Shown here piece by piece: positions 14,747 through 52,507 of a stretch of 64,000 nucleotides of DNA. The notes under the pieces were generated by a model. The model was not told the origin of the DNA. It was given only the letters and a program-made list of their open reading frames with translations, and made no database searches. Source of the stretch: Nocardiopsis coralli (GTDB lineage Bacteria; Actinomycetota; Actinomycetes; Streptosporangiales; Streptosporangiaceae); contig NZ_JADBGI010000028.1 in the NCBI RefSeq assembly GCF_014892575.1, forward strand, positions 1 through 64,000, in the 5' to 3' direction. The translations under genes and the position numbers were made by a program. Each line of letters starts with the position of its first letter. The first letter of the stretch is position 1.

Positions 14747-16198
14747 ATGCGCAATACGCTCCGTTACTCCTTCGCCACGGCGCTCACCGCCGGCCTGGTC
14801 GTGACACCCATCGCCGCCGCCTACGCCGACACCGTCACCGACGGATCCGGCGGGGTCGGCAGCGGCAACCAGATCAACGTTCCCGTCGACATCGAGGCCG
14901 ACCTGTGCGGCAACTCGCTCGCCGTGCTCGGGATCTCCCAGGCCGAGTGCACCAAGGTCTCCGAGGTGCTCTACGAGTCCAGCGGCCAGGCCGAGACCGA
15001 CGGCTCGGGCGGTGTGGCCAGCGGGAACCAGATCGTCATCCCCGTCGACGCCGCCATCGACGCCTGCGGCAACTCGGCCGCGGTCGGCGGTGTCTCCGAG
15101 GCCGACTGCGTCGAGGTCGTGGAGAAGCTCGAGGAGGAGGTCGGCGGCGAGGCCTCCGACACCCTGAGTACCGACGGTTCCGGCGGTGTGGCCAGCGGGA
15201 ACCAGATCGACGTCCCGGTCGACGCCGCCCTCGACATCTGCGGGAACTCCGTGGCCGTGCTCGGCGGGTCCAGCGCCAAGTGCACGACCGTCATCAACGT
15301 CATCCAGGCCTCCGACGCCAACTCCGCCGAGGGTGAGGGCGGCGGTGACGGGGGCACCTCCACCGACGGTTCCGGCGGTGTGGCCAGCGGGAACCAGATC
15401 GACGTCCCGGTCGACGCCGCCATCGACATCTGCGGGAACTCCGTGGCCGTGCTCGGCGGGTCCAGCGCCAAGTGCACGACCGTCATCAACGTCATCCAGG
15501 CCTCCGACGACAACTCCGCCGAGGGTGAGGGCGGCGGTGACGGGGGCACCTCCACCGACGGTTCCGGCGGTGTGGCCAGCGGGAACCAGATCGACGTCCC
15601 GGTCGACGCCGCCCTCGACATCTGCGGGAACTCCGTGGCCGTGCTCGGCGGGTCCAGCGCCAAGTGCACGACCGTCATCAACGTCATCCGGGCCTCCGAC
15701 GACAACTCCGCCGAGGGTGAGGGCGGCGGTGACGGGGGCACCTCCACCGACGGTTCCGGCGGTGTGGCCAGCGGGAACCAGGTCAACGTCCCGGTGAACG
15801 CGGCCCTCGACATTTGCGGCAACGCGGTCTCCGTGCTCGGCGTCGCCGAGGCGCAGTGCCTCGAGACCATCTCCGAGGAGGAGCCGCCCGAGGACGGCAA
15901 GGAAGAGGTGCCCGAGGACGACGGCCCGGGCGAGGTCCCCGAGGAGGACCCCGAGGAGCCCCCGCGTGAGGAGGAGCCGGGCGACGACGGCAAGGACGAG
16001 GACCCCGCCGACGACGGTGCGTCCGAGGCCCCGGCCGACGAGCAGAAGGCCCCCGAGGAGGCCGCCGCCGAGCTGCCCGTGACCGGTGGCGCCCTGACCG
16101 GCCTTGTGGCCGCCGGCCTCGCCGCGATCGGTGCCGGTGGCGCCGGTCTCTACTTCACCCGCAAGCGCAAGGCCGCCGCGGTGGGCGCCGAGGACTGA
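14747..16198 (+). CDS. Six-domain chaplin protein with LPXTG anchor
   Basis: 483 residues. A signal peptide (about residues 1-27, ending AAAYA) precedes six chaplin domains. Each has the pattern DGSGGVASGNQ, VPVDAA, then a CGNSVAVLG-type core and a second Cys about ten residues later. Domains 3-5 are nearly identical; domains 1, 2 and 6 differ. A Glu/Asp/Pro-rich spacer (about 375-440) leads to LPVTG (443-447), a membrane helix and a KRK tail, so sortase anchoring to the wall is expected. Chaplins are hydrophobic amyloid-forming proteins that coat aerial hyphae and spores in streptomycetes. Long chaplins there carry two domains and a sorting signal; six is more than those. GAAAGG precedes the ATG. 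Confidence 0.92.
   Translation: MRNTLRYSFATALTAGLVVTPIAAAYADTVTDGSGGVGSGNQINVPVDIEADLCGNSLAVLGISQAECTKVSEVLYESSGQAETDGSGGVASGNQIVIPVDAAIDACGNSAAVGGVSEADCVEVVEKLEEEVGGEASDTLSTDGSGGVASGNQIDVPVDAALDICGNSVAVLGGSSAKCTTVINVIQASDANSAEGEGGGDGGTSTDGSGGVASGNQIDVPVDAAIDICGNSVAVLGGSSAKCTTVINVIQASDDNSAEGEGGGDGGTSTDGSGGVASGNQIDVPVDAALDICGNSVAVLGGSSAKCTTVINVIRASDDNSAEGEGGGDGGTSTDGSGGVASGNQVNVPVNAALDICGNAVSVLGVAEAQCLETISEEEPPEDGKEEVPEDDGPGEVPEEDPEEPPREEEPGDDGKDEDPADDGASEAPADEQKAPEEAAAELPVTGGALTGLVAAGLAAIGAGGAGLYFTRKRKAAAVGAED
15170..15797. repeat. 192-bp tandem repeats within chaplin gene
   Basis: Units start at 15170, 15362, 15554 and 15746, a strict 192-bp (64-codon) period; the fourth is partial. Units one to three differ from one another at only about two or three bases each, including at synonymous sites, which points to recent duplication or gene conversion. 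Each unit encodes one chaplin domain plus a Gly/Glu/Asp linker. Confidence 0.95.
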
Positions 16199-26828: not shown

Positions 26829-26915
26829 CGGAGGATATGGGATTTGAACCCATGAGGGGGTTGCCCCCCAACCGCATTAGCAGTGCGGCGCCCTAGGCCT
26901 CTAGGCGAATCCTCC
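26829..26915 (-). tRNA. tRNA-Ser (GCU anticodon)
   Basis: The minus strand folds into a class II tRNA. The 7-bp acceptor stem pairs GGAGGAT with ATCCTCC, the anticodon stem pairs CCGCA with TGCGG around a loop CTGCTAA, and the long variable arm contains GGGGGG/CCCCC typical of serine tRNA. The T arm contains GGTTCAAATCC. The anticodon GCU reads AGC/AGU serine codons. The discriminator base is G and CCA is not encoded. Confidence 0.95.
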
Positions 26916-27062
26916 TGGCTGCGCTCAGCCTACAGGGCGCCGAGGGGGCGCGCAAAACGGTTGCCCTGGTCGGGGCGGTCCTGTGGTGCGGGTCACGAGT
27001 CATGGGTTGCCTCCGATGCCCGTCACGCGGCTTTGTGTCCGTTGTGCCCAGAAAGGACTCAT

Positions 27063-27131
27063 GGCCAAGAATGGGAGTTAATTCCACTCTGTGGCCCTTT
27101 AAGATCTGTGTTTGAAAATCCTCCATGGAGG
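27063..27131 (+). promoter_or_regulatory. Dyads upstream of giant DUF11 surface protein gene
   Basis: The 330-bp gap from 26916 to 27245 has no gene but contains an A+T-rich patch with two dyads. GGCCA (27063-27067) and TGGCC (27092-27096) flank the concentric GGA/TCC pair around TTAA, centred at 27079/27080. CCTCCATGGAGG at 27120-27131 is a perfect 12-bp palindrome. They lie 115-185 bp ahead of the chosen start. A regulatory role is inferred. Confidence 0.35.
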
Positions 27132-27245
27132 TGCAAAGAAAGAACATTTCGGCTGGTCAAAGCGTTTCTTGCTGCGTTGGGTGTCCGAGTATTCCTCTGG
27201 GCTGATCCGGCCCTTGTGGTCGGCGATCGAGGGATCGGGGGAAAA

Positions 27246-30200
27246 GTGCGGCAAGAGAGTCTTCAGCGCTCGAAGAGGGGGCGCCGTCCGCGTGTGTTCA
27301 TGGGTGGGGCCTTCGCCTGGCTTGCGATGTTTCTACTGCTCATGGGGTTGGCGCCGCCTGGTGCGGGCGCGGAGCCGGAGCGGGTGGCGCAGCAGCAGGC
27401 CATCCCCGACGAGGGCGGGAATCGACCCGGTGCGTCCGAAATGTGCAACGGGTACAATTTCATCGCGGCGTCCCGAAACTATGCGACGCCCCCGACGGAG
27501 ATCTACCGTTCCGACCCCCTCACCGGTGCTCTCCAAAAACTCGGGGCCGAGGGTGATCAGATCGCCGAGGGCGCGAACGGGCTCGCTTTCAGCAACCTCG
27601 ACGGATTCCTCTATGCCTTCGACATGGAGGGTCCGGAGGGGCAGCGCTTGCTGAAGATCTCTCCGGCCGACGGTTCGGTGGTCGAGCGGTTCGATCTGGA
27701 CCTCTCGGACGAATCGATCGTCGACGCGACCGCCACACTCGACGGGACCGCGCTCATCACCCTCTCCAACGGTGGCCAGTACTGGCGCGTGGTCAACATC
27801 GACCCCGGAGCCGGCCCGGTCGGCGAGATCCTGGAGGAGTACGAGCGTCCCGAGGTCGGCGTGGTCTGGGACATCGGGCTCAACCCCGCGGACGGGCTGG
27901 TCTACACGGTCGGTGACGGCCACCTCAGGCAGTGGGACCCCGACAACGGGTTCCAGCTGCTCGACGAGGTCCCCGTGGACAACCCGAACTCCGCGCGCGG
28001 TGTCACCTTCGACGAGGTCGGCCACATGTTCGTGTGGAGCGACGGCCAGCCGAAACAGACGTACATGTTCGACCTCACCGAGGGGGACCTCGACACCCCG
28101 CCGGTGGCGCTGGCGCAGCAGGGATCGATCGAAATCGGCACCAACTACGCCCGTGAGGTCGATGCCGCGGGCTGCCTCATGTACGGGTCCTTCGGCGACG
28201 CACCCGACGAGAACCACGGCACGCTCCTGGCGTCCGACGGCGCGCAACACACCGGTGGCGGGGCCGTCCCCGACCCGGACGCCCCGCGGGACCTGGCCCT
28301 GGGCGATCGCATCAACTACACCGAGGACGCCGTGTACAACGACGGCCTCCCCCTCAACGGCCACAACAACCCCGGGCACGACGCGATCGACGCCATGCCG
28401 AACATCGCCCGTACCGCCGACTCCTACGAGGTGGACCTCAGGGTCACCAACAACACGGGGGAGGCGGCCACCCTGGCCGGGTGGATCGACTTCAACGGGA
28501 ACGGCACGTTCGACGAGGACGAACGCACCTACGTCACCGTCCCACCGGGCGCCGGGTCGGCGACCCTGAGATGGGAAGACATCGGAACCGTGGCCGAGGG
28601 CGAGCTCTTCGCACGCTTCCGCCTGTACCCGGGCGACGTGGACCCCGGGGACCTGAGTCCCACGGGCACGGTCGTCGGCGGTGAGGTCGAGGACTGGGTG
28701 GTCCGCGGCGGAGCCGACCCCGAGACGTGGGTGCACAAGAGCGCCGACACCGACGAGGCCGTGGTCGACCAGCGGGTCGCGTACACGGTCGCCGTCACCA
28801 ACGGCAGCTCCGGCCCCCAGACCCCGGACGTCAGCGACGACATCTCGGGTGTGCTCGACGACGCGGACCTCGACGAGGGGAGCCTGCGGGCCGAGATCGA
28901 CGGCAGGGAAGTGAGCCCTCCGCGGTTCGACCCCGGATCAGCCACGTTGATCTGGTCGGGGAGCGGTGACGAGAGACTGGAACCCGGCCAGACCCTGACC
29001 ATCACCTACGAGGTCACCGTGCGGGGCGAGCCGTACGACGCCCGGGACTTCGAGATGCTCAACACGGTCACCGTGCCTGGTACCAACTGCCCGTCCGGAG
29101 CGGTCGACCCCGCGTGCACGGCCCGTGTCGACATCCAGCAGGCCGACGTCGACGTGCGCAAGGCCGTCACCGGTTCACCGGCCGAGGTCGTCGCGGGTGA
29201 GCCGTTCTCCTGGACCACCGAGGTGACCAACCTGGGTGCCGACACGGCCGTGAACACCGTCGTGACCGACACCGTGCCCGACGGCGTGGACATCGAGGAC
29301 GCCTACTACGAGACCCCGGGCGGTGCCAGGTACTGGTGTGACATCTCGGGTCAGGACGTCACCTGCGACCTCGGGGACATGCCGGCGGGAGACGTGTACA
29401 CCCTCACCATCGAGGCGAGGGTCGCGCCGGACTCCACGGGCGAGATCCCCGAGAACACCGTCCGCGCTACGACCGACTCCGTCGACCTGGACCCGGAGAA
29501 CGACGAGGACACCTCCGACCCGGTGCCGATCACCCAGAACGCTGACATGTGGGTGGAGAAACACGTGGTGTCGGGGGTCGTGCACCCCGGTGACCAGGTC
29601 GAGTGGGAAGCCACCGTCCGCAACGACGGGCCCTCCACCGCGACCGGCGTCGTACTCACCGACACCGTTCCGGACGGAGCCGAGAACGTCTCCGTGGCCG
29701 ACGACGGCGGGATGAACTGCGAGGTGTCCGGCCAGGAGGTGCGGTGCGAGGCCGACCGGCTCGAACCGGGGGAGTCCCTCACCGTGCGGATCATCGCCGA
29801 TGTGGTTTCCGGTACGGCCGGCATCGACGGGAACCCGGTTCAGGTCGAGAGCGAGACCCCGGACGGCAACCCTGACAACAACGAGGACACCAGCGAACCG
29901 ATCGTGGTGGACCCCGCGGCCGACGTGTCCGTGACCAAGCAGGCCATGGACGACACACCTGTCGCCGGCGGACCGGTCTCCTGGACGCTCGACATCGCCA
30001 ACGACGGGCCTTCCGCGGCCGAGAACGTCGTGGTCACCGACCCCGTCCCGGACGGTGTGACCGACGTGGCCACCGACGACCCCCGGTGCAGTGTCTCGGG
30101 CGGCACGGTCACCTGTCACCTCGGCACGATGGCCGAGGGCGAGAGCGTGCAGATCACACTGTCCGGAACCCTGTCGCCGGACGCACAGGAGCTGCCGGGC

Positions 30201-32807
30201 AACGAGGTCTCGGCCGGCTCCGACACCCATGACCCTGACGAGGAGAACAACACCGACGGGACCGACCCGGTCCCGGCCGACACCAGCGCCGACGTCTCCA
30301 CCACCAAGCGGGCGGTCAACGAGTCCGTCGACGCCGGAGACGAGGTCAGCTGGGAGGTCGTCGTCGACAACGCCGGCCCGTCCGTGGCCCGGGACGTCAC
30401 TCTCGAGGACACCGTCCACGACTCGGTGACGGGTCTGTCCGCGGAGACCACCGCCGGTTCCTGCGACGTCTCCGGTCAGGAGGTCTCCTGCAGCCTGGGC
30501 GACCTCGGGGTCGGTGAGCCGGTCACGGTCACCATCACCGGGACCCTGGACGGCGAGGCCACCGAACTGCCGGAGAACACCGCCAGGGCGGACAGCGGGA
30601 CCGACGACCCGGATCCTGACAACAACGAGAGCACCTCGCCGCCGATCGAGGTCGGCACGTCCGCCGACGTCGAGGTCACCAAGGAGCTGCTGACCGACCG
30701 GGTCGTTCCGGGTGAGCAGGTCCAGTGGCAGGTCGTGGTCGGCAACAACGGCCCGTCCACGGCGATGGGGGTCGAGGTAGCCGACACCCTGCCCGCCGGC
30801 CTCACCGGCACCACCGCCGAGATCGAGGGCGGCACGGGCGACGAGTGCCTGGTCAGCGGGGAACGGGTCGAGTGCGCGCTCGGCAACCTGGCCTCCGGCG
30901 CGACCGTGACCATCACACTCACCGGAACCCTGTCGCCCGAGGCCCGTGTGCTCGGCGAGAACACCGTCGAGGCCGGTTCGTCGACCCCGGACCCGGAACC
31001 CGACAACAACACCGACACCACGGAGGAGACCGAGGTCCATCCGACGACCGACCTGGCCGTCACCAAGGAAGGGCCGGCCACCGCCACACCGGGCGGTCAG
31101 GTCCAGTGGAACGTCGTGGTCAGCAACAACGGACCGTCCGACGCCACCGGCGTGACGCTCATCGACACCGTCCCCGACGGGGTCACAGGCGTCAGTGCCA
31201 CCTTCGGTGAGGAGACCGCCGAGTGCGCGGTCTCGGGCCAGGAGGTCACCTGCGACATCGGTGAGCTCGCTGCGGGCACGGGGACCCCGGTGACCATCAC
31301 CGGAACCCTGGCCCCGGACGCGACCGTCCTGCCGGCCAATACGGCCGACGTTGTCGGTGACGACGAGGACCCGGACGAGGACAACAACACCGACACCTCC
31401 GAGGAGGTCCCGGCCGAGCTGTCCGCCGACCTGGCCGTCGACAAGACCCTGACCACCGACCCGGTCCAGGCCGGCGAGGAGGTCGCCTGGGAGGTCACGG
31501 TCACCAACAACGGACCGTCCGACGCGGCCGGCACGGTCGTGAACGACGTCGTCCCGGACGGGGTCACGGGGGTCAGCGCGTCGTTCGGCGACCCCGCGGA
31601 GGAATGCACGGTCGGCACCCGGCACGTGCAGTGTGACCTGGGCACCCTGGCCGGCGGGGAGACGGTCACCATCACACTGACCGGCACTCTGGACGCGCAG
31701 GCCACCGAACTCGGTTCGAACGTCGCCCGGGTGGGCTCCGAGGTCCCCGACCCGAACCCGGACGACAACGAGGTCACCACCGACCCGGTGGCCCTTGACC
31801 CCGTCGCCGATCTGTCGGTGCAGAAGGACCTGCTGACAGACCCGGTCGTGGCCGGTCAGGATGTGAGCTGGCAGGTCACCGTGGCCAACGCGGGCCCGTC
31901 GGAGGCCACCGGCGTGACCGTCACCGACACCCTGCCCGAGGAGGTCTCCGGGGCCTTGGTCACGTCCTCGTTGGGCGACTGCGAGGTGGACGGACGCGAG
32001 GTCACCTGCACGGTCGACACGATCCCGGCCGGGGGCTCGGTCGCGGTGTGGATCACTGCGCTGGTCGACCCGGACGCGACCGGGATCGGTGCCAACACCG
32101 CTCGGGTGGAGTCCGAGGTCACGGACCCGAACCCGGACGACAACGAGGTCACCACCGACCCCGAACCGGCCGTACCGGTGGCCGACGTCGGTGTCATCAA
32201 GGCGGTGACCACCGACCCGGTCGTGGCCGGTGAGGAGGCCTCCTTCAGGGTCCTGGTCACCAACTACGGCGTGTCCACGGCACGGGGTGTGAGCCTGGGC
32301 GACGCCGTGCCATCGGGCCTGAGCGACATCGAGGTCTCCGACCACGACGGCTGGGACTGTTCGGTCAGCGGCAACGACGTCTCCTGCACGGCCGACACGC
32401 TGGAGGTCATGGGCACGCTCGGGGTCACGATCACCGGCCGCCTGGCCGGCGACGCGACGGAGCTGCCGGCGAACACGGCACTCGTCTCCACCGAGTCCGA
32501 GGACCCGCACCCGGAGAACGACCGGAACACCACCGACCCGGTCCCGGTCGGGCCGGACCCGTCGCCGAGCCCGACGCCCACGCCCACGCCCACGCCGACT
32601 CCGACACCGTCGCCCACCGGACCCACGGGGAGCCCCGAGCCGGGGCCGGACGAGCCGACCGCGCCGCACGCCGACGGCGATCTGCCACGCACCGGCATGC
32701 TGCTCGTGCCGTTGGTCGGGGTCGGTGCGGTCCTCGTGGCCGCGGGTACCGCCCTGTACCTCGGGGTGGGACGCCGCCGCAGCAGCAGGGGGACGTCGAT
32801 GGACTGA
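27246..32807 (+). CDS. Giant LPXTG-anchored surface protein with DUF11 repeats
   Basis: About 1853 residues. A basic n-region (KRGRRPR) and hydrophobic core (AFAWLAMFLLLMGLAPPG) form a signal peptide. Residues about 55-340 look like a DUF6923-type beta-propeller, about 345-485 a GEVED domain (GWIDFNGNGTFDEDERTYV; GGEVEDWVV), then about ten DUF11 repeats of 125-135 residues, each starting ADxxVTK...V.AGE.VxW and ending in DNNED/DPNPDDNE. A Pro/Thr/Ser linker leads to LPRTG (1813-1817), a membrane helix and RRR. DUF11 modules build long stalks on cell walls, often adhesins. I chose the GTG at 27246 because it gives a complete signal peptide with GGGGG upstream; the ATG at 27300 is possible. Confidence 0.88.
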   Translation: MRQESLQRSKRGRRPRVFMGGAFAWLAMFLLLMGLAPPGAGAEPERVAQQQAIPDEGGNRPGASEMCNGYNFIAASRNYATPPTEIYRSDPLTGALQKLGAEGDQIAEGANGLAFSNLDGFLYAFDMEGPEGQRLLKISPADGSVVERFDLDLSDESIVDATATLDGTALITLSNGGQYWRVVNIDPGAGPVGEILEEYERPEVGVVWDIGLNPADGLVYTVGDGHLRQWDPDNGFQLLDEVPVDNPNSARGVTFDEVGHMFVWSDGQPKQTYMFDLTEGDLDTPPVALAQQGSIEIGTNYAREVDAAGCLMYGSFGDAPDENHGTLLASDGAQHTGGGAVPDPDAPRDLALGDRINYTEDAVYNDGLPLNGHNNPGHDAIDAMPNIARTADSYEVDLRVTNNTGEAATLAGWIDFNGNGTFDEDERTYVTVPPGAGSATLRWEDIGTVAEGELFARFRLYPGDVDPGDLSPTGTVVGGEVEDWVVRGGADPETWVHKSADTDEAVVDQRVAYTVAVTNGSSGPQTPDVSDDISGVLDDADLDEGSLRAEIDGREVSPPRFDPGSATLIWSGSGDERLEPGQTLTITYEVTVRGEPYDARDFEMLNTVTVPGTNCPSGAVDPACTARVDIQQADVDVRKAVTGSPAEVVAGEPFSWTTEVTNLGADTAVNTVVTDTVPDGVDIEDAYYETPGGARYWCDISGQDVTCDLGDMPAGDVYTLTIEARVAPDSTGEIPENTVRATTDSVDLDPENDEDTSDPVPITQNADMWVEKHVVSGVVHPGDQVEWEATVRNDGPSTATGVVLTDTVPDGAENVSVADDGGMNCEVSGQEVRCEADRLEPGESLTVRIIADVVSGTAGIDGNPVQVESETPDGNPDNNEDTSEPIVVDPAADVSVTKQAMDDTPVAGGPVSWTLDIANDGPSAAENVVVTDPVPDGVTDVATDDPRCSVSGGTVTCHLGTMAEGESVQITLSGTLSPDAQELPGNEVSAGSDTHDPDEENNTDGTDPVPADTSADVSTTKRAVNESVDAGDEVSWEVVVDNAGPSVARDVTLEDTVHDSVTGLSAETTAGSCDVSGQEVSCSLGDLGVGEPVTVTITGTLDGEATELPENTARADSGTDDPDPDNNESTSPPIEVGTSADVEVTKELLTDRVVPGEQVQWQVVVGNNGPSTAMGVEVADTLPAGLTGTTAEIEGGTGDECLVSGERVECALGNLASGATVTITLTGTLSPEARVLGENTVEAGSSTPDPEPDNNTDTTEETEVHPTTDLAVTKEGPATATPGGQVQWNVVVSNNGPSDATGVTLIDTVPDGVTGVSATFGEETAECAVSGQEVTCDIGELAAGTGTPVTITGTLAPDATVLPANTADVVGDDEDPDEDNNTDTSEEVPAELSADLAVDKTLTTDPVQAGEEVAWEVTVTNNGPSDAAGTVVNDVVPDGVTGVSASFGDPAEECTVGTRHVQCDLGTLAGGETVTITLTGTLDAQATELGSNVARVGSEVPDPNPDDNEVTTDPVALDPVADLSVQKDLLTDPVVAGQDVSWQVTVANAGPSEATGVTVTDTLPEEVSGALVTSSLGDCEVDGREVTCTVDTIPAGGSVAVWITALVDPDATGIGANTARVESEVTDPNPDDNEVTTDPEPAVPVADVGVIKAVTTDPVVAGEEASFRVLVTNYGVSTARGVSLGDAVPSGLSDIEVSDHDGWDCSVSGNDVSCTADTLEVMGTLGVTITGRLAGDATELPANTALVSTESEDPHPENDRNTTDPVPVGPDPSPSPTPTPTPTPTPTPSPTGPTGSPEPGPDEPTAPHADGDLPRTGMLLVPLVGVGAVLVAAGTALYLGVGRRRSSRGTSMD

Positions 32808-32890: not shown

Positions 32891-33418
32891 TCAGACGGTC
32901 GTGCGCTCGATGATGAGGTCGGCGTCGTGGCGCAGTTTCTCGGTGGCGCGGGAGAGTGTGCTCTTGACCGTCCCGAGCGTGACACCGAGGCGTTCGGCGA
33001 TCTGGGCCTCGGTGAGGTCGTCGTAGTAGCGCAGCACCACGGTGGCGCGCTGCCGGTCGGGGAGGCGTTCGACGGCGCGTGCCACGACGTCCGCGAGGTC
33101 GCTGCGCCAGGTGGGGTCGTCCACACGCTGCTCGGGGATCTCGTCGGTGGGGTAGACGTCGAGCCGGCTCCGGCGCCACTCGGAGATCTGGGTGTTGACC
33201 ATCGCCCGCCGCACGTAGCCGTCCAGGGCACGGGGGTTGGTGATGCGGTCCCAGGAGAGGAAGGTCTTGACCAACGCCGCCTGCAGCAGATCCTCGGCGT
33301 CGGCATGGCTGTTGGTGAGGTTTCGGGCCATGCGCAGAAGTGCGGGTCCGCGCTCCGCGACGTATCCGCTGAAGTCGTCGAACCTGGGGCTCTGGGCGGT
33401 ACCCGCCACGGCGCTCAC
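32891..33418 (-). CDS. SigE-family ECF RNA polymerase sigma factor
   Basis: 175 residues. Region 2 covers about residues 10-80 (FSGYVAERGPALLRMARNLT; DAEDLLQAALVKTFLSWDRI), region 4 about residues 110-165 (RLPDRQRATVVLRYYDDLTE; GVTLGTVKSTLSRATEKL). It matches the SigE-like subgroup of actinomycete ECF sigma factors, which often lack a classic neighbouring anti-sigma gene. None is seen here. The GTG at 33418 has GGAGAGGG upstream, and the longer open frame upstream looks non-coding. It is convergent with the DUF11 gene; whether it controls surface genes nearby is not shown. Confidence 0.88.
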   Translation of the reverse strand: MSAVAGTAQSPRFDDFSGYVAERGPALLRMARNLTNSHADAEDLLQAALVKTFLSWDRITNPRALDGYVRRAMVNTQISEWRRSRLDVYPTDEIPEQRVDDPTWRSDLADVVARAVERLPDRQRATVVLRYYDDLTEAQIAERLGVTLGTVKSTLSRATEKLRHDADLIIERTTV

Positions 33419-33659
33419 CGACCCTCTCCGTGACGTGATGTTCCTTCTGTCCCGTTTCCTCCCCTCACTGTCACACAGCGTGAGCAAACGCTCGGGTATG
33501 TGGACTCCATGTGATCGCAAACGGCCGTCCGTGCAGGCCACGCCGTCGGCACGGCATCGACACGAACCGGTGCGTACCGGCGTGTAACCGGAGCTCGGAG
33601 GGCCACGTCGGCAGAATGGGCACTGAGGACGAGTCGGGTTACAGGGGGGCGCAAGCGAC

Positions 33660-34631
33660 ATGTCAGTGACGACCGAGAGCGGAGCGGACCGGGCGCGGTT
33701 CACGGCCGCGGTGCTCGGGCCCGACACGGCACCCGTGCCCACGCCGCTCGGGACCCGTGTGGCACGCGGTGTGGTGGTCGGCGTGACCTCCTACATGCTG
33801 TGCCTGGCCACCGAACGCGGCGAGGAACGGTTCCTGTTCGAACGCATCACCACGTTCTGGCGGGGCGGCGAGGTCGGGCCCGAGGACCTGAGGGTGGGCG
33901 ACGACGCCGTGGTGCGCTGTTCCCACGACGGGCGCCTGGTGGCCGAGCGGGTCTGGGCACAGATCGCCCGGGCCGCCGGCGTGATCGTGTCCCGTCAGGG
34001 GGAGGCGGTCGAGATCGACCCCGGGCACGGGAAACCGCGCAGGAACGTGGTCCTGCCCTACCGCACCTCCGGACGCATCTCCGTCCGGCACCCGCGGCTG
34101 GAACCCGGCTACGTGTTCGACGCCGTCGGGGTATGGCGCGACGGCGAAATCTGGGCGGCCCGGCCCGCCACCACCCAGCCGCCGTATCCGCTGCGCTCCA
34201 CACCGCGCCGACCTCCGGTGCGCACCCACACGGACACACTCAACGGCATCGCGACCTGGTACGACCCGTCGTGGGGCCGTGCCACGCACCTCGACCCGCG
34301 GGCCCTGGCCACCGGCGCGGCCTACCCCGTGCTGGACCGGGACAGCCACGCCGCGGGCTGCGACGCACGCACGTCGTGTGTGCCGCTGCCCCAGTTGTCG
34401 GTGGGTGCACGCATGACTCTGCGCAACGACTGCACCCGTGAGGCGGGTGTGCTGGAGGTGCTCGGCTGCGCCGCGGCCGACAGCTGGCTGTGCGACCTGT
34501 GCCCCACGTGCGGCGGCCAGGGCGCCGGGCGCGTCGCCTCCCTCACTCTGGCTTCCTTCGTCGCCCTCGGCGGGCGTCCGGAGGAAGGGTGCTTCAACGC
34601 CACCGTGACCGTAGCGAGCGGGGAGGGATGA
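33660..34631 (+). CDS. Cys-rich protein, possible double-psi barrel domain
   Basis: 323 residues, not firmly recognised. Residues about 195-305 contain GIATWYDPSWGRATHLDP and SVGARMTLRNDC, which recall the double-psi beta-barrel of RlpA-like proteins, and a set of cysteines (CDARTSC, CTREAG, LCDLCPTCGG, CFN) that would form disulfides or bind metal. The N-terminal half (about 1-170) is a different, beta-rich region. No signal peptide or membrane helix is seen, so how it reaches an oxidising space is unclear. Its stop overlaps the start of the next gene by 4 nt (ATGA), so the two form a translationally coupled pair. Confidence 0.7.
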   Translation: MSVTTESGADRARFTAAVLGPDTAPVPTPLGTRVARGVVVGVTSYMLCLATERGEERFLFERITTFWRGGEVGPEDLRVGDDAVVRCSHDGRLVAERVWAQIARAAGVIVSRQGEAVEIDPGHGKPRRNVVLPYRTSGRISVRHPRLEPGYVFDAVGVWRDGEIWAARPATTQPPYPLRSTPRRPPVRTHTDTLNGIATWYDPSWGRATHLDPRALATGAAYPVLDRDSHAAGCDARTSCVPLPQLSVGARMTLRNDCTREAGVLEVLGCAAADSWLCDLCPTCGGQGAGRVASLTLASFVALGGRPEEGCFNATVTVASGEG

Positions 34632-46109: not shown

Positions 46110-46358
46110 GACTTTGCCTCCCTGGGTTCGGCGGTGTCGTCCAAGTATCGCGAATCCCCGGAGCCGTTGAAAAGGTCTAGACCAAAGTGCCCGGCCTTGT
46201 CGGGTTCACGTGAGCTGCGGGGTGTCCGTTCCCTGCGGTTCTTCCGGGGGAGACAGGGGGCGGGATGATCTGTGAAGATGTGACCGAATTGTGTGATCGG
46301 TGGGGCTACTGGTCGACTGCTGTCGCTTTTTGCCGTGATACACGCTACATTCGACGCC

Positions 46359-46784
46359 GTGGGAAGGCATAGGAACGATCCTCGAGGCGTTGGTCAGGTG
46401 ATGGCCATCGTTGTGGCCGTCGTGCTTTTGGTCGGCATGGTCGGCTTGGGCGTGTTCTTCTTCTACCGGTCACTGCCGTCGACAGACACCAGTGTCAACG
46501 CCAACGCCTCCGAGGCATCCGTCGAGGAAGAACGGCCCGACAACCTGGGCGCTCTGTACATCCAGGTCACCGGGGAGTCCAGCAACGTCCACGTCCGGGA
46601 GCCCGGCGGCGACGTCCTCCTCGACTACGAACTCAGACAGGGCCAGTCGGTGAACTACACGACCGCCGACGGCGGGCTCGAGGTCACCGTCGAGGACCCG
46701 ACCGCGGTGGAGGTCTTCGTCAACGGCGAGGAGCGCGACATCTCCGACCGCGACCCGGAGTTCAGCTTCAGCATCGACGGCTGA
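46359..46784 (+). CDS. Single-pass membrane protein of unknown function
   Basis: 141 residues. After a basic N terminus (GRHRNDPRGVGQV) comes one helix (AIVVAVVLLVGMVGLGVFFFY, in parts) and an acidic extracellular domain of about 100 residues (LGALYIQVTGESSNVHVREP) that looks beta-rich. No family is recognised. The GTG at 46359 is a guess: the ATG at 46401 would begin at the helix itself. A TACATT element ends 7 nt before the GTG, which would suit a leaderless transcript starting at the codon. Confidence 0.65.
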   Translation: MGRHRNDPRGVGQVMAIVVAVVLLVGMVGLGVFFFYRSLPSTDTSVNANASEASVEEERPDNLGALYIQVTGESSNVHVREPGGDVLLDYELRQGQSVNYTTADGGLEVTVEDPTAVEVFVNGEERDISDRDPEFSFSIDG

Positions 46785-48621: not shown

Positions 48622-49347
48622 TCAGGTGCCTGCCAGGATGTCGAGCAGGGTCACCGCCTCCCGGTGTGTGGCGGGCAGGGACACTTCGCACACCGACGCG
48701 CCCGCGTCGCGGCACGGCCCGGAACGCAGGGCCGACACCTCCGCGGCCGTCGTCGGGGCTGCGGGTACCAGGGCGGCGACGCGGCCGCGCGAGAGCACGC
48801 ACACCGATTCGCCGCGGGTGAAGAAGCGGCCGAGCTCGTGCCCCAGCACGATCAGCCGCGCGGCGCGCCGCCACGGGTCCAGGCCGGCGGCGAGCGAGAC
48901 CACGAGCAGGCGGTGGCGCGCGGCCGCGGGCTCGGCCTCCTCGGGGCAGCGGTAGAGCTCGGCCAACCGGGTGCGCAGGTAGGCGGCGTTGGCCAGGCCG
49001 GTGAGCGGGTCCTGGCACGTGTCGGCTCCGCGGCCCGCGTCGGTCCACCCCTCGGCCAGGGCACGGAGGAGTTCCAGGGGTGGTGTTTCCCACCCGGCCA
49101 CGTCCGTGAAGGCGGCCAGGTCGATCATGCTCTGCCCCACACCGATGCCGCCGCGGGCCCGGGCGGCCCCGAGGCGGGTGCACGGTCCGGTCAGGTCCCG
49201 GCCGTCGTCGTGCGCGGCGCACACCGCGTCCACGGCTGGGGTCCACCAGTCCTCCGGCGGGTCCCAGCCCCGCGCGCGGCTTCGGCGCCCCCACGGAGCG
49301 CGCAGATCCAGGGCACGGGTCCCGGTGTCCACGTCTGTCTCGCCCAC
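48622..49347 (-). CDS. Degenerate GGDEF-domain protein
   Basis: 241 residues. The segment CQDPLTGLANAAYLRTRLAE near residue 110 is the start signature of GGDEF (diguanylate cyclase) domains. The GGDEF/GGEEF loop itself is missing: the matching region reads SVCVLSRGRVAALVP, so cyclase activity is very unlikely. It may bind nucleotide or act as a scaffold. No signal peptide or membrane helix is seen. I chose the GTG at 49347 because GGGGGAACTGAC lies just before it; GTG codons at 49404 and 49374 are alternatives. It is divergent from the sigma-factor fusion gene and could share its control region. Confidence 0.72.
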   Translation of the reverse strand: MGETDVDTGTRALDLRAPWGRRSRARGWDPPEDWWTPAVDAVCAAHDDGRDLTGPCTRLGAARARGGIGVGQSMIDLAAFTDVAGWETPPLELLRALAEGWTDAGRGADTCQDPLTGLANAAYLRTRLAELYRCPEEAEPAAARHRLLVVSLAAGLDPWRRAARLIVLGHELGRFFTRGESVCVLSRGRVAALVPAAPTTAAEVSALRSGPCRDAGASVCEVSLPATHREAVTLLDILAGT

Positions 49348-49543
49348 GTCAGTTCCCCCAGGTCGTTCGGTCACCTCGACGGCCCCGTCGAGGCCCTCCG
49401 TCACACGACTTACGGAGATCGGTGGCGGCTATGACGCGGATGCGGGATATTTTTCCGAGTAAGTTGTGCACGGGCTCCCTCGCCCTGTGCCGACCGCCCG
49501 TCTCCCGGTCTGCGGAGGGCTCCCCCCGAAGAAAGGACGTTGG

Positions 49544-52507
49544 GTGACCGACGCCCGAGGCAACGACACAGAGACACTCGTCGGTGACGCTGAGCTGATC
49601 GCTCAGGTACGCGACGGGGACACCGGGGCCTACGCGGTTCTGTACGAACGGCACTCGGCCGCCGGGCGCGGACTGGCACGGCAGCTCCTGCGGGGCGACG
49701 CCGAGGTCGACGACGCCGTGGCCGAGGCCTTCACACGTGTGCTCAGCGTGATCCAGCGCGGCGGCGGCCCCACCGATGCGTTCCGCCCCTACCTGCTCAC
49801 CGCCGTGCGCAACGCGGCCCACGACCGCGGCCGCGGCGACAAGCGGCAGGTGGCAACCGAGGACATGGAGAGCGTCGCCCCGGGTCAGCCCTTCGTGGAC
49901 CCGGCGCTGGAGGGCCTGGAACGCTCCCTCATCGCGCGTGCGTTCCTGTCGCTGCCCGAACGCTGGCAGGCGGTGCTGTGGCACACCGAGATCGAGGGCG
50001 CCAAGCCGGCGGAGGTCGGCCCGCTGCTCGGGATGAAGGCCAACAGTGTCGCCGCGCTCGCCTACCGTGCCCGCGAAGGGCTGCGCCAGGCCTACCTCCA
50101 GATGCACCTGGCCGGCGGCGCGGCACCCCAGGCGTGCCGTCCCACCATCGACCTGCTCGGTGCGTACGTGCGCGGAGGCCTGGCCAAGCGGGAGAGCGGC
50201 CGGGTCGACACCCACATGGACGGTTGCGGGCACTGCCGCGAGGTCTACGCCGAGCTCATGGACGTCAACGTCGGGCTGCGCGGGATCGTGCTGCCCCTGT
50301 TCGCCGGGTCCGGGGCCGCCGGCTACTTGGCGGCCGGTCCGGGCGCGGTCGGCGGCGCGGGCTGGAACCGCATGTCCAAGGGACAGCAGCAGGCCTCGGC
50401 CGGGGGAGTGGCGGCCGCCGCCGTCGCGGCCGCGGTCGCCCTGGCCCTGGTCAGCGCCGACGAACCGGTCACCCAGGACACACCCTCTGCCGCGGCGCCC
50501 GAGGCCCCGCCCGCCGAGGAGGACCCGCCGGCGCCGGACAGCCCCGACGACCCCGATGCCCCTGAGGACCCCGACGATCCCGACGACCCGGACAGCCCGG
50601 ACGCCCCGGACGCCCCGGACGCCCCGCCGGAGGACGACGACGAGGAGCCCGCCCCGGACGACCCCGCGGCCCCCGACGACCCGGACACCCCCGACGACCC
50701 GGAGGAGGAGCCCGAGCCGCAGGAGGCGGTTCTGCCCGCCGACGTCCCCGAGGAGGACATCCCCGTCGACGACGAGTTCCCGGCCTTCGCCGCCGGGGTC
50801 GACCCCGTGGGCTCCCTGCTCCAGGGCTCCGACGGGATCATGGTCCTGGACGTGCGCAACATCGGTCAGGCCACCGCCGACGACGTGATCGCCGACTTCA
50901 CGCTCCCGCCCGGCGTGACCCTGGTGGAGGCCGGCGGCGCGGGCAGCGCCCTCCCGGCCTCGTCGGGCACGGGCGACTGGAGCTGCTCGTCCGGGGGCGG
51001 CGGCGAGGGCACGTGTGTGCTGTCCGGGCTCGGCGAGGGGGAGAACGCCACCCAGTTCCTGGACGTGCGTGTGGACCAGGGCGCGCAGACCGACGTTCCC
51101 GGCTCGGTCACCGTCAGCTCGGGTGAGGTGAGTACGACCGTCGACGGTGAACGCGGTGTGGCCACCGAGGGTGTGGCCGCGCGGTACGCCGCCGCCGGAC
51201 AGGTCAGCTCCGATGCTGTGGGCAACACCCTCATGACCTGCGTGGAACCGGAGAAGCCCGAGAAGCCCGAGCCCTGGTGGCCGTGGCCGCTGCACGGGTG
51301 GAGCCACCCCGGCGTCCCGGAGGGGCCCGACGCCCCGGAAGCCCCCGAGGACACCGAGCCCCCGGCCGAGGACACCGAACCCCTGCCCGAGGACACCGGG
51401 GACCTCAGCCGGGCCCCCGCCGACCCCGGCGACGGGGAACAGGGCACGGACCCGGAACAGGACCCCGGCGCCGGCCTGCCCGGGCTCCCGGACACACCCG
51501 AGACGCCCGAGCTCCCCGGCCTGCCCGACCCCGGTGACGGATCCGGCCCCGAGGAACCCGACCCCGGCGACCCCGACGCGCCCGACGGCGAACCGCCCGC
51601 GGAGACCCCCGATGCGCCCGACGCCCCGGAGGCCCCTGAAGCGCCCGAAACACCGGAGGCCCCTGAAGAGGACGCCGACCCGGACACCGGTCACCCCGGC
51701 CCCTGCGCCGAGGCCCGCGAACGCGGCGGCGAACACCGCGACAACGACCACTTCGAGATGGAGCCGCTCGACCGCGACCACGACCCCACCACGCAGGCGT
51801 CCAGCTCCGCGCAGTGGGAGATGCCCGAGGGCGGTTCCGTGCTCTGGGCCGGGCTCTACTTCTCCGGCGCCGGAGAGCCGTCGGCCCCCACCGCCCGGGT
51901 CAAGGGCCCCGGCATGGCCTCGTACACGACGGTCCCGGCGGCCGAGCACGACACCGCCGAGCTCCCCGGGTACGGCGCCTACCAGGCCTTCGCGGACGTC
52001 ACCCCGATGGTCGCCGAGCACGGCGCGGGGGAGTGGTGGGTCGCCGACGTCCCGCACCTGGAGGGCACCGGGGTGCACGCGGGGTGGAGCCTGGTCGTGG
52101 TGCTCGAGGACCCCACGGTGGACGTGCACAGCCAGACTATGGTCATGGACGACACCGTGACCGTCTTCCAGGGGGCCTCCGACGCCCACTTCCCGGTGTC
52201 CGGACTGCTGCCGGGCTCGGTTCCGGGCGACCTGAACGCGGTGGCCTGGGAGGGTGACGCGGATCTGGGCGGGGACCAGGTCACCGCCGGCGGCACACCG
52301 TTGGCCCCGACCGACGGCCACCACGGCAGCGCGCAGAACGCCTTCGTCTCGTCGTCGCGTGGTGCGGTCGGCGACCCCTTCACCTTCGGGACGGACGTGG
52401 TGCGATTCGACCCCGTGGTCGGGCGGGATACGGATATCCGAATCCGGTCGGATCAGGACGCGGTCCTGGTGGGCGCGATCGCCCTGGACGCCCCCATGCG
52501 CCGCTGA
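49544..52507 (+). CDS. ECF sigma factor fused to anti-sigma, membrane and sensor region
   Basis: 987 residues in one frame. Residues about 15-95 are sigma region 2 (DAELIAQVRDGDTGAYAVLY; EVDDAVAEAFTRVLSVIQRG) and about 125-190 region 4 (LPERWQAVLWHTEIEGAKPA; GMKANSVAALAYRAREGLRQ). Next comes a zinc-finger anti-sigma-like motif, H224-x3-C228-x2-C231, then a helix near 287-304. The remainder is probably outside the cell: an Asp/Glu/Pro-rich stalk (305-430), a DUF11-like domain (about 435-575), a second acidic Pro stretch (about 600-745) and a beta-rich domain (about 760-987) like those of actinomycete surface proteins (VLWAGLYFSGAG; HAGWSLVVVLEDP). A membrane-tethered sigma factor is implied. 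GAAAGGACG lies before the GTG. Confidence 0.88.
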   Translation: MTDARGNDTETLVGDAELIAQVRDGDTGAYAVLYERHSAAGRGLARQLLRGDAEVDDAVAEAFTRVLSVIQRGGGPTDAFRPYLLTAVRNAAHDRGRGDKRQVATEDMESVAPGQPFVDPALEGLERSLIARAFLSLPERWQAVLWHTEIEGAKPAEVGPLLGMKANSVAALAYRAREGLRQAYLQMHLAGGAAPQACRPTIDLLGAYVRGGLAKRESGRVDTHMDGCGHCREVYAELMDVNVGLRGIVLPLFAGSGAAGYLAAGPGAVGGAGWNRMSKGQQQASAGGVAAAAVAAAVALALVSADEPVTQDTPSAAAPEAPPAEEDPPAPDSPDDPDAPEDPDDPDDPDSPDAPDAPDAPPEDDDEEPAPDDPAAPDDPDTPDDPEEEPEPQEAVLPADVPEEDIPVDDEFPAFAAGVDPVGSLLQGSDGIMVLDVRNIGQATADDVIADFTLPPGVTLVEAGGAGSALPASSGTGDWSCSSGGGGEGTCVLSGLGEGENATQFLDVRVDQGAQTDVPGSVTVSSGEVSTTVDGERGVATEGVAARYAAAGQVSSDAVGNTLMTCVEPEKPEKPEPWWPWPLHGWSHPGVPEGPDAPEAPEDTEPPAEDTEPLPEDTGDLSRAPADPGDGEQGTDPEQDPGAGLPGLPDTPETPELPGLPDPGDGSGPEEPDPGDPDAPDGEPPAETPDAPDAPEAPEAPETPEAPEEDADPDTGHPGPCAEARERGGEHRDNDHFEMEPLDRDHDPTTQASSSAQWEMPEGGSVLWAGLYFSGAGEPSAPTARVKGPGMASYTTVPAAEHDTAELPGYGAYQAFADVTPMVAEHGAGEWWVADVPHLEGTGVHAGWSLVVVLEDPTVDVHSQTMVMDDTVTVFQGASDAHFPVSGLLPGSVPGDLNAVAWEGDADLGGDQVTAGGTPLAPTDGHHGSAQNAFVSSSRGAVGDPFTFGTDVVRFDPVVGRDTDIRIRSDQDAVLVGAIALDAPMRR

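What the first reader, a model, noticed from the sequence alone, without database searches (positions are those of the whole stretch)
49544..52507. One-protein transmembrane sigma factor: ECF sigma, zinc-finger anti-sigma, membrane helix and adhesin-like ectodomain
A single uninterrupted frame joins sigma regions 2 and 4, an H-x3-C-x2-C zinc motif, one hydrophobic helix and about 680 residues of extracellular-looking sequence with a DUF11-like and a surface-protein-like domain. This implies a sigma factor tethered to the membrane and released by a signal sensed outside, for instance by proteolysis. Fused anti-sigma ECF groups exist in actinobacteria (for example ECF52/ECF53, recalled from memory), so the principle is known; the ectodomain and its ligand are not. 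The adhesin-like ectodomain beside a genome segment rich in surface proteins suggests it senses the cell surface or substrate contact.
Basis: partly seen in the sequence, partly recalled or inferred. Interest (0 to 1): 0.75.

Follow-up and report, generated by a model that had tools for sequence, protein, structure and literature searches.

The report
Membrane-tethered sigma factor with adhesin-like sensor
A single protein joins a gene-switching sigma factor, its own zinc-finger inhibitor, a membrane anchor and an adhesin-like outer sensor; this layout is already known in actinobacteria (ECF52-type), but the sensor type and an almost inseparable partner gene that looks like a dead GGDEF enzyme appear to be new.

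Summary
One conserved frame (49544-52507, 987 aa) encodes ECF sigma regions 2 and 4, a zf-HC2 domain (C198, H224, C228, C231), one hydrophobic helix, an acidic Pro-rich linker, an Ig-like DUF11 domain and a DUF3344-like C-terminal domain. It is full-length in at least 21 related genomes, with dN/dS below 1 in every well-aligned segment.

The principle is published: ECF48/52/53 proteins carry a fused zinc-finger anti-sigma and a membrane helix, and SCO4117 (ECF52) has been studied. Here SCO4117's NPCBM sensor is replaced by DUF11 plus DUF3344-like domains. Relatives carry NPCBM, ricin or Ig domains instead, so the sensor is swapped while the core is kept.

The less expected result is next door. 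The divergent gene encodes a degenerate GGDEF-like protein without the GGDEF motif. In 46 of 47 genomes carrying it (297 sampled), it lies within 431 bp of a sigma/anti-sigma gene: 27 divergent, 19 co-directional. A 42-bp intergenic element is conserved in the family; its core recurs upstream of a whiB-like gene next to the sigma gene in another family.

Most likely mechanism: an envelope signal triggers proteolytic release of the sigma factor, with the pseudo-GGDEF protein as cytoplasmic co-regulator. Release and partner role are inferred.

The parts
49544..52507 (+). Fused ECF sigma / zinc anti-sigma / TM / adhesin-like ectodomain protein, 987 aa
49640..49846 (+). Sigma-70 region 2 (aa 33-101)
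   Evidence: Pfam; model of aa 1-312 matches E. coli sigmaE region 2, VIA Z 14.5, rmsd 1.4, 90 aligned
49928..50077 (+). Sigma-70 region 4 (aa 129-178)
   Evidence: Pfam below cut-off; TIGR02937 above cut-off spans 30-183
50135..50239 (+). zf-HC2 anti-sigma domain (aa 198-232; C198, H224, C228, C231)
   Evidence: helices 196-209, 215-227, 229-254 in the model
50396..50452 (+). Single predicted transmembrane helix (aa 285-303)
   Evidence: hydropathy; helix 279-304 in the model, low confidence there
50456..50764 (+). Acidic Pro-rich linker 1 (aa 305-407)
50765..51253 (+). DUF11 / Ig-like domain (aa 408-570), C481 and C491 invariant
51254..51688 (+). Acidic Pro-rich linker 2, an insertion between invariant C566 and C721 (6-7 aa in Streptosporangiaceae/Actinomadura)
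51689..52504 (+). C-terminal DUF3344-like domain (aa 716-987)
   Evidence: aligns to L042, a DUF3344 protein above Pfam cut-off; homologues L083 and one more match DUF3344 weakly
48622..49404 (-). Divergent degenerate-GGDEF protein (conserved start near 49347); conserved partner gene
49412..49453 (.). 42-bp conserved intergenic element (promoter-like or operator), single copy in the genome

Best explanation
It is an ECF52/53-type one-protein sigma switch. The N-terminal ECF sigma factor is held inactive in cis by the zinc-finger anti-sigma domain on the same chain and is tethered to the membrane by one helix. Outside, a flexible acidic Pro-rich stalk carries a disulfide-stapled DUF11/DUF3344-like sensor of the kind found in cell-surface adhesins. 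An envelope or surface event sensed by that ectodomain leads to cleavage (site-1, then an M50 site-2 protease) and release of the sigma domain, which activates a small regulon. The adjacent degenerate-GGDEF protein works in the same switch, most likely as a cytoplasmic protein that binds the sigma or zinc-finger domain. Shown: the domain layout, its conservation, the sensor swapping, the partner linkage and the shared DNA element. Inferred: topology, inhibition in cis, cleavage, regulon, the partner's biochemical role and the signal.
For: Domains and sigma fold. Zinc ligands invariant across 35 sequences from several actinobacterial orders. Whole frame under purifying selection. Ectodomain exchanged between NPCBM, ricin, Ig+ricin and DUF11+DUF3344-like while the sigma/zinc core is kept. 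Ig-like DUF11 fold like integrin and adhesin/pilin domains, Z 10-12, rmsd 2.3-3.7, 95-127 aligned. Four invariant cysteines. Partner gene within 431 bp in 46 of 47 genomes, in two orientations. Conserved element with its core repeated before a whiB-like gene. M50 proteases present in the genome. Published model for SCO4117 (PMC5826349, PMC8999054) and a GGDEF domain that binds a sigma factor (PMC13232838).
Against: No experiment. Topology rests on hydropathy and charge only. M50 proteases occur in all 14 control genomes, so their presence is weak support. No intramolecular sigma/anti-sigma contact was measured, and pTM of the N-terminal model is only 0.45. The gene is lost or reduced to remnants in some genomes of the genus (G002, G019, G027). 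The SCO4117 sigma-only mutant did not behave as a simple always-on allele. A ligand is unknown.
Confidence: 0.62

Rival explanations
1. The sigma factor stays tethered and is switched by a conformational signal through the helix (or by zinc/thiol oxidation of the anti-sigma domain), without proteolysis; it would transcribe at the membrane.
For: Zinc anti-sigma domains can be redox-sensitive (general knowledge). Pinto and Mascher, as quoted in PMC5826349, proposed either a proteolytic cascade or conformational change.
Against: Published proposals for ECF48/52/53 favour proteolysis, by analogy with IutY. A long flexible Pro-rich linker is poorly suited to transmit a conformational signal.
Confidence: 0.2
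2. The pseudo-GGDEF protein is a structural or metabolic neighbour retained by shared promoter DNA, not a component of the switch.
For: The two genes share an intergenic region and a conserved element, so separation could be selected against for expression reasons alone.
Against: In family f21 the arrangement changes to same-strand with the partner upstream, yet adjacency is kept in 19 of 19 genomes. Other neighbours (purA, FBA, pyrE, NYN) are not kept across orders, the partner is.
Confidence: 0.25
3. The ectodomain is mainly an adhesin or structural surface protein, and the sigma part reports its successful export or assembly rather than an external ligand.
For: DUF11/DUF3344 occur in fibrillar adhesins (PMC9210967); disulfide-stapled, long stalk.
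Against: No LPXTG motif or other wall anchor at its C terminus; relatives use sugar-binding NPCBM and ricin domains in the same place, which suggests sensing.
Confidence: 0.15

Closest known systems
SCO4117 of Streptomyces coelicolor (ECF52)
   Same: ECF sigma + zf-HC2 + one TM + Pro-rich stalk + extracytoplasmic domain on one chain; a probable SCO4117 ortholog by architecture and its TetR/AtrA-like neighbour (L037) is about 40% identical in the sigma/zinc part
   Different: NPCBM sensor instead of DUF11+DUF3344-like; no pseudo-GGDEF neighbour found at L037; lies beside a TetR/AtrA-like gene; ectodomain much shorter
ECF53 and ECF48 groups
   Same: Fused zinc anti-sigma and membrane helix predicted to be released by proteolysis (PMC8999054)
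   Different: Group models were not available; assignment could not be tested
IutY of Pseudomonas putida (ECF243)
   Same: Sigma and anti-sigma on one chain, activated by regulated proteolysis
   Different: Gram-negative cell-surface signalling for siderophores; no zinc finger or adhesin ectodomain described in the passage read
RmdB-sigmaWhiG-RsiG of Streptomyces venezuelae
   Same: A GGDEF domain binds a sigma factor and displaces its anti-sigma (PMC13232838)
   Different: RmdB has an active EAL phosphodiesterase; our partner is a small protein without the GGDEF motif; sigmaWhiG is not a membrane ECF
DUF11/DUF3344 fibrillar adhesins
   Same: Same ectodomain families (PMC9210967)
   Different: Here they are joined to a sigma factor rather than to a cell-wall anchor

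Membership tests
ECF52 (as described for SCO4117) | ECF sigma domain (TIGR02937) with regions 2 and 4 | tested here: met
ECF52 (as described for SCO4117) | Fused zinc finger (PF13490) | tested here: met
   E 1.1e-7 above cut-off, ligands invariant
ECF52 (as described for SCO4117) | Transmembrane region after the zinc finger | tested here: met
   hydropathy only, aa 285-303
ECF52 (as described for SCO4117) | Proline-rich C-terminal extension | tested here: met
   28% Pro in both linkers
ECF52 (as described for SCO4117) | Carbohydrate-binding (NPCBM) domain | tested here: not met
   no NPCBM match in P0001; DUF11 and DUF3344-like instead; the same search finds NPCBM in L037
ECF52 / ECF53 / ECF48 | Assignment by the ECF group models | not testable with these tools
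   models not held; tree puts all fused proteins together apart from two ordinary ECFs, but leaves the order among them open
ECF52 / ECF53 / ECF48 | Activation by regulated proteolysis | not testable with these tools
   needs an experiment; M50 proteases present
DUF3344 (PF11824), C-terminal domain | Match above the gathering score | tested here: not met
   no hit for P0001; link is through L042 (above cut-off) and L083 (below cut-off)
DUF11 (PF01345) | Match above the gathering score | tested here: not met
   18.6-19.8 bits against 24.6; fold agrees with Ig-like adhesin and integrin domains
Diguanylate cyclase / GGDEF (partner gene) | Active-site GG(D/E)EF motif | tested here: not met
   position reads e.g. 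GRGRV or GPSVA; motif absent in all 12 homologues
Diguanylate cyclase / GGDEF (partner gene) | Homology to GGDEF domains | tested here: met
   all four PDB matches are GGDEF proteins, best E 0.0036; weak, and no Pfam hit

The most novel reading that the evidence does not exclude
A widespread actinobacterial two-gene module in which a catalytically dead GGDEF protein is the dedicated cytoplasmic co-regulator of a membrane-tethered sigma factor, so that an external contact or ligand signal (through interchangeable ectodomains) and an internal nucleotide or protein signal (through the pseudo-GGDEF) meet on one sigma factor, possibly feeding a WhiB-like regulator.
Probability: 0.3. Interest if true: 0.78.

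Novelty: new variant of a known kind. Interest (0 to 1): 0.56.

Why it matters
Membrane-tethered sigma factors are a direct route from cell surface to genome, yet SCO4117 is the only member of the actinobacterial class I found studied, and its signal and partners are unknown. The conserved pseudo-GGDEF partner gives a concrete candidate for a missing cytoplasmic component, and the interchangeable ectodomains offer natural swaps for finding the signal. The conserved DNA element gives a testable promoter for a class whose promoter consensus is disputed (PMC5826349).

Tried and rejected
No Rfam family in the region. Sigma-70 promoter scan found nothing. A genome-wide search for the loose core GACG-N17-TGACGCG gave 5 hits against 4 in the reversed control, so no regulon can be read from it. 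Strict searches find the element only once in the window's genome, and most 2-3-mismatch hits in 20 genomes look like chance. The direction of the element (-35/-10) was not settled: it reads toward the partner gene in both arrangements and toward the whiB-like gene, but no hexamers were assigned. Independent co-loss of sigma and partner could not be used as evidence: in G027 one deletion appears to have removed parts of both. The main ECF classification paper is not held.

Full report
What is there. The frame 49544-52507 (GTG start, + strand) encodes 987 residues without interruption. It holds sigma-70 region 2 (aa 33-101), region 4 (129-178), a zf-HC2 domain (198-232) and a weak DUF11 match (434-526). 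The general ECF model TIGR02937 is above its cut-off. The best hydrophobic segment is aa 285-303, followed by a stretch that is 28% proline with a net charge of -47. An AlphaFold model of aa 1-312, made with 34 relatives, gives the sigma fold (best match E. coli sigmaE region 2, Z 14.5, rmsd 1.4, 90 residues) and the three helices expected of a zinc anti-sigma domain; the relative placement of the parts is not reliable (pTM 0.45). The N-in, C-out topology follows from hydropathy and charge only.

It is a real, selected gene. In 60 related genomes the protein is found full-length and open in at least 21, at 61-80% identity. Conservation starts at the 49544 start. Pairwise dN/dS is 0.03-0.12 in the sigma part, 0.12-0.27 in the zinc domain, 0.34-0.52 in DUF11 and 0.21-0.37 in the C-terminal domain; the two Pro-rich linkers reach up to about 0.7, and the 21-residue TM segment of one pair could not be scored because dS is saturated. 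Two draft genomes show frame changes in Ala- or Pro/Asp-rich stretches. Some genomes of the genus lack the gene or hold remnants (G002, G019, G027), so it is dispensable in some lineages. The nearest named relatives are Nocardiopsis and Streptomonospora; the host is therefore most likely a Nocardiopsis (inference).

The ectodomain. Model of aa 408-987: the first domain is an Ig-like beta sandwich resembling integrin leg domains, the CLIPPER domain of a fibrillar adhesin and the pilin EbpB (Z about 10-12). The C-terminal domain has no direct Pfam match, but it aligns (E 1.9e-16) to a secreted-looking protein in another genome (L042) that is a DUF3344 member above the cut-off, and two homologues of the ectodomain match DUF3344 weakly. 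DUF11 is a known stalk domain, and DUF3344 overlaps a cluster of predicted fibrillar adhesins of ambiguous function (PMC9210967). Four cysteines are invariant in 21 sequences: C481, C491, C566 and C721. Between the last two lie 6-7 residues in Streptosporangiaceae and Actinomadura, but 13-162 residues, mostly acidic and Pro-rich, in Nocardiopsaceae. The second linker is thus an insertion between two probably disulfide-bonded cysteines (bond inferred), and the model leaves it disordered.

The sensor is exchanged, the core is kept. The same sigma/zinc core carries NPCBM in L037, Ig plus ricin lectin in L036, a similar layout in family f21, ricin lectin in L040, L041 and L043, and DUF11 or NEW3-like domains elsewhere (the L041 and f21 readings are from sequence likeness, the others from Pfam). 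L037 lies next to a TetR/AtrA-like gene and has the SCO4117 architecture, so it is most likely the SCO4117 ortholog. All fused proteins group apart from two ordinary ECF factors of the same genome, but the branching order among the fused proteins is unresolved and several branches are long.

The partner gene. The divergent gene (48622-49404, -) has no Pfam match, but a profile of 12 homologues hits only GGDEF proteins in the PDB (best E 0.0036), over the DPLTGL...YLRTRL segment and the active-site region, where the GG(D/E)EF motif is absent in all. In a sample of 297 genomes of the class, 47 carry it at E <= 1e-8, and 46 of these have a sigma/zinc gene within 431 bp: 27 divergent and 19 on the same strand with the partner upstream, the latter all in family f21. 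Other neighbours (purA, FBA, pyrE, NYN) are not kept beyond Streptosporangiales, while the partner is kept in Pseudonocardiales, Cellulosimicrobium and Nocardioides. Streptomyces-like genomes of family f20 have the sigma protein but no partner at this threshold. I found no report of this pair in the papers searched, which is a limited library.

The DNA element. Between the two genes a 42-bp block (49412-49453) is nearly invariant in Nocardiopsaceae and occurs once in the genome. Across families the core (A)CG-N17-TGACGCG recurs at this place. In two genomes of family f21 the 26-27-bp core of the element (read on the opposite strand) lies upstream of a whiB-family gene directly downstream of the sigma gene, matching 23 of 23 specified positions. 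In the arrangements examined it reads toward the partner or toward that whiB-like gene, as a promoter would. Which protein reads it is not shown.

Mechanism. By the published model for this class, the zinc domain holds the sigma factor in cis, a signal on the ectodomain triggers regulated proteolysis and the sigma domain is freed (PMC8999054; PMC5826349). The genome has M50 proteases, as do all control genomes. SCO4117 is needed for timely development and for expression of chaplin, rodlin and other genes (PMC5826349). For the partner, the nearest precedent is RmdB, whose GGDEF domain binds sigmaWhiG and displaces the anti-sigma RsiG (PMC13232838). A dead GGDEF protein that binds the sigma or zinc domain would fit, but this is inference.

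Verdict. It is not filed as a member of ECF52, because the carbohydrate-binding domain given for ECF52 in the SCO4117 paper was tested and is absent; it works like an ECF52. The ectodomain is a new variant, and the strongest new lead is the conserved pseudo-GGDEF partner.

Noticed in passing
window 26883-32807 (+): A 1974-aa LPXTG surface protein with nine DUF11 domains, about 17 kb from the sigma gene.
   Followed up: partly
window 14747-16198 (+): A six-repeat chaplin with an LPXTG motif; chaplin genes are SCO4117-dependent in S. coelicolor.
   Followed up: no
window 32891-33742 (-): A second, ordinary ECF sigma factor in the same window.
   Followed up: no
L180:5555-5830 (+), L179: whiB-family gene directly downstream of the fused sigma gene in family f21, with the same upstream element core as the window.
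   Followed up: partly
L046:6340-7473: In genome G027 a deletion seems to have joined a piece of the partner gene to remnants of the ectodomain; G002 and G019 keep only about the last 50-60 codons.
   Followed up: partly
L106:3567-8792, L121: Cellulosimicrobium versions reach over 1740 aa with a DUF11 domain; the rest is unassigned.
   Followed up: no
L042:5783-6961 (+): Stand-alone secreted-looking DUF3344 protein in a genome rich in fused sigma proteins; could be a partner or ligand of such ectodomains.
   Followed up: no
window 46293-46784 (+): Small one-TM protein with a RodZ C-terminal domain, kept near this locus in Streptosporangiales.
   Followed up: no
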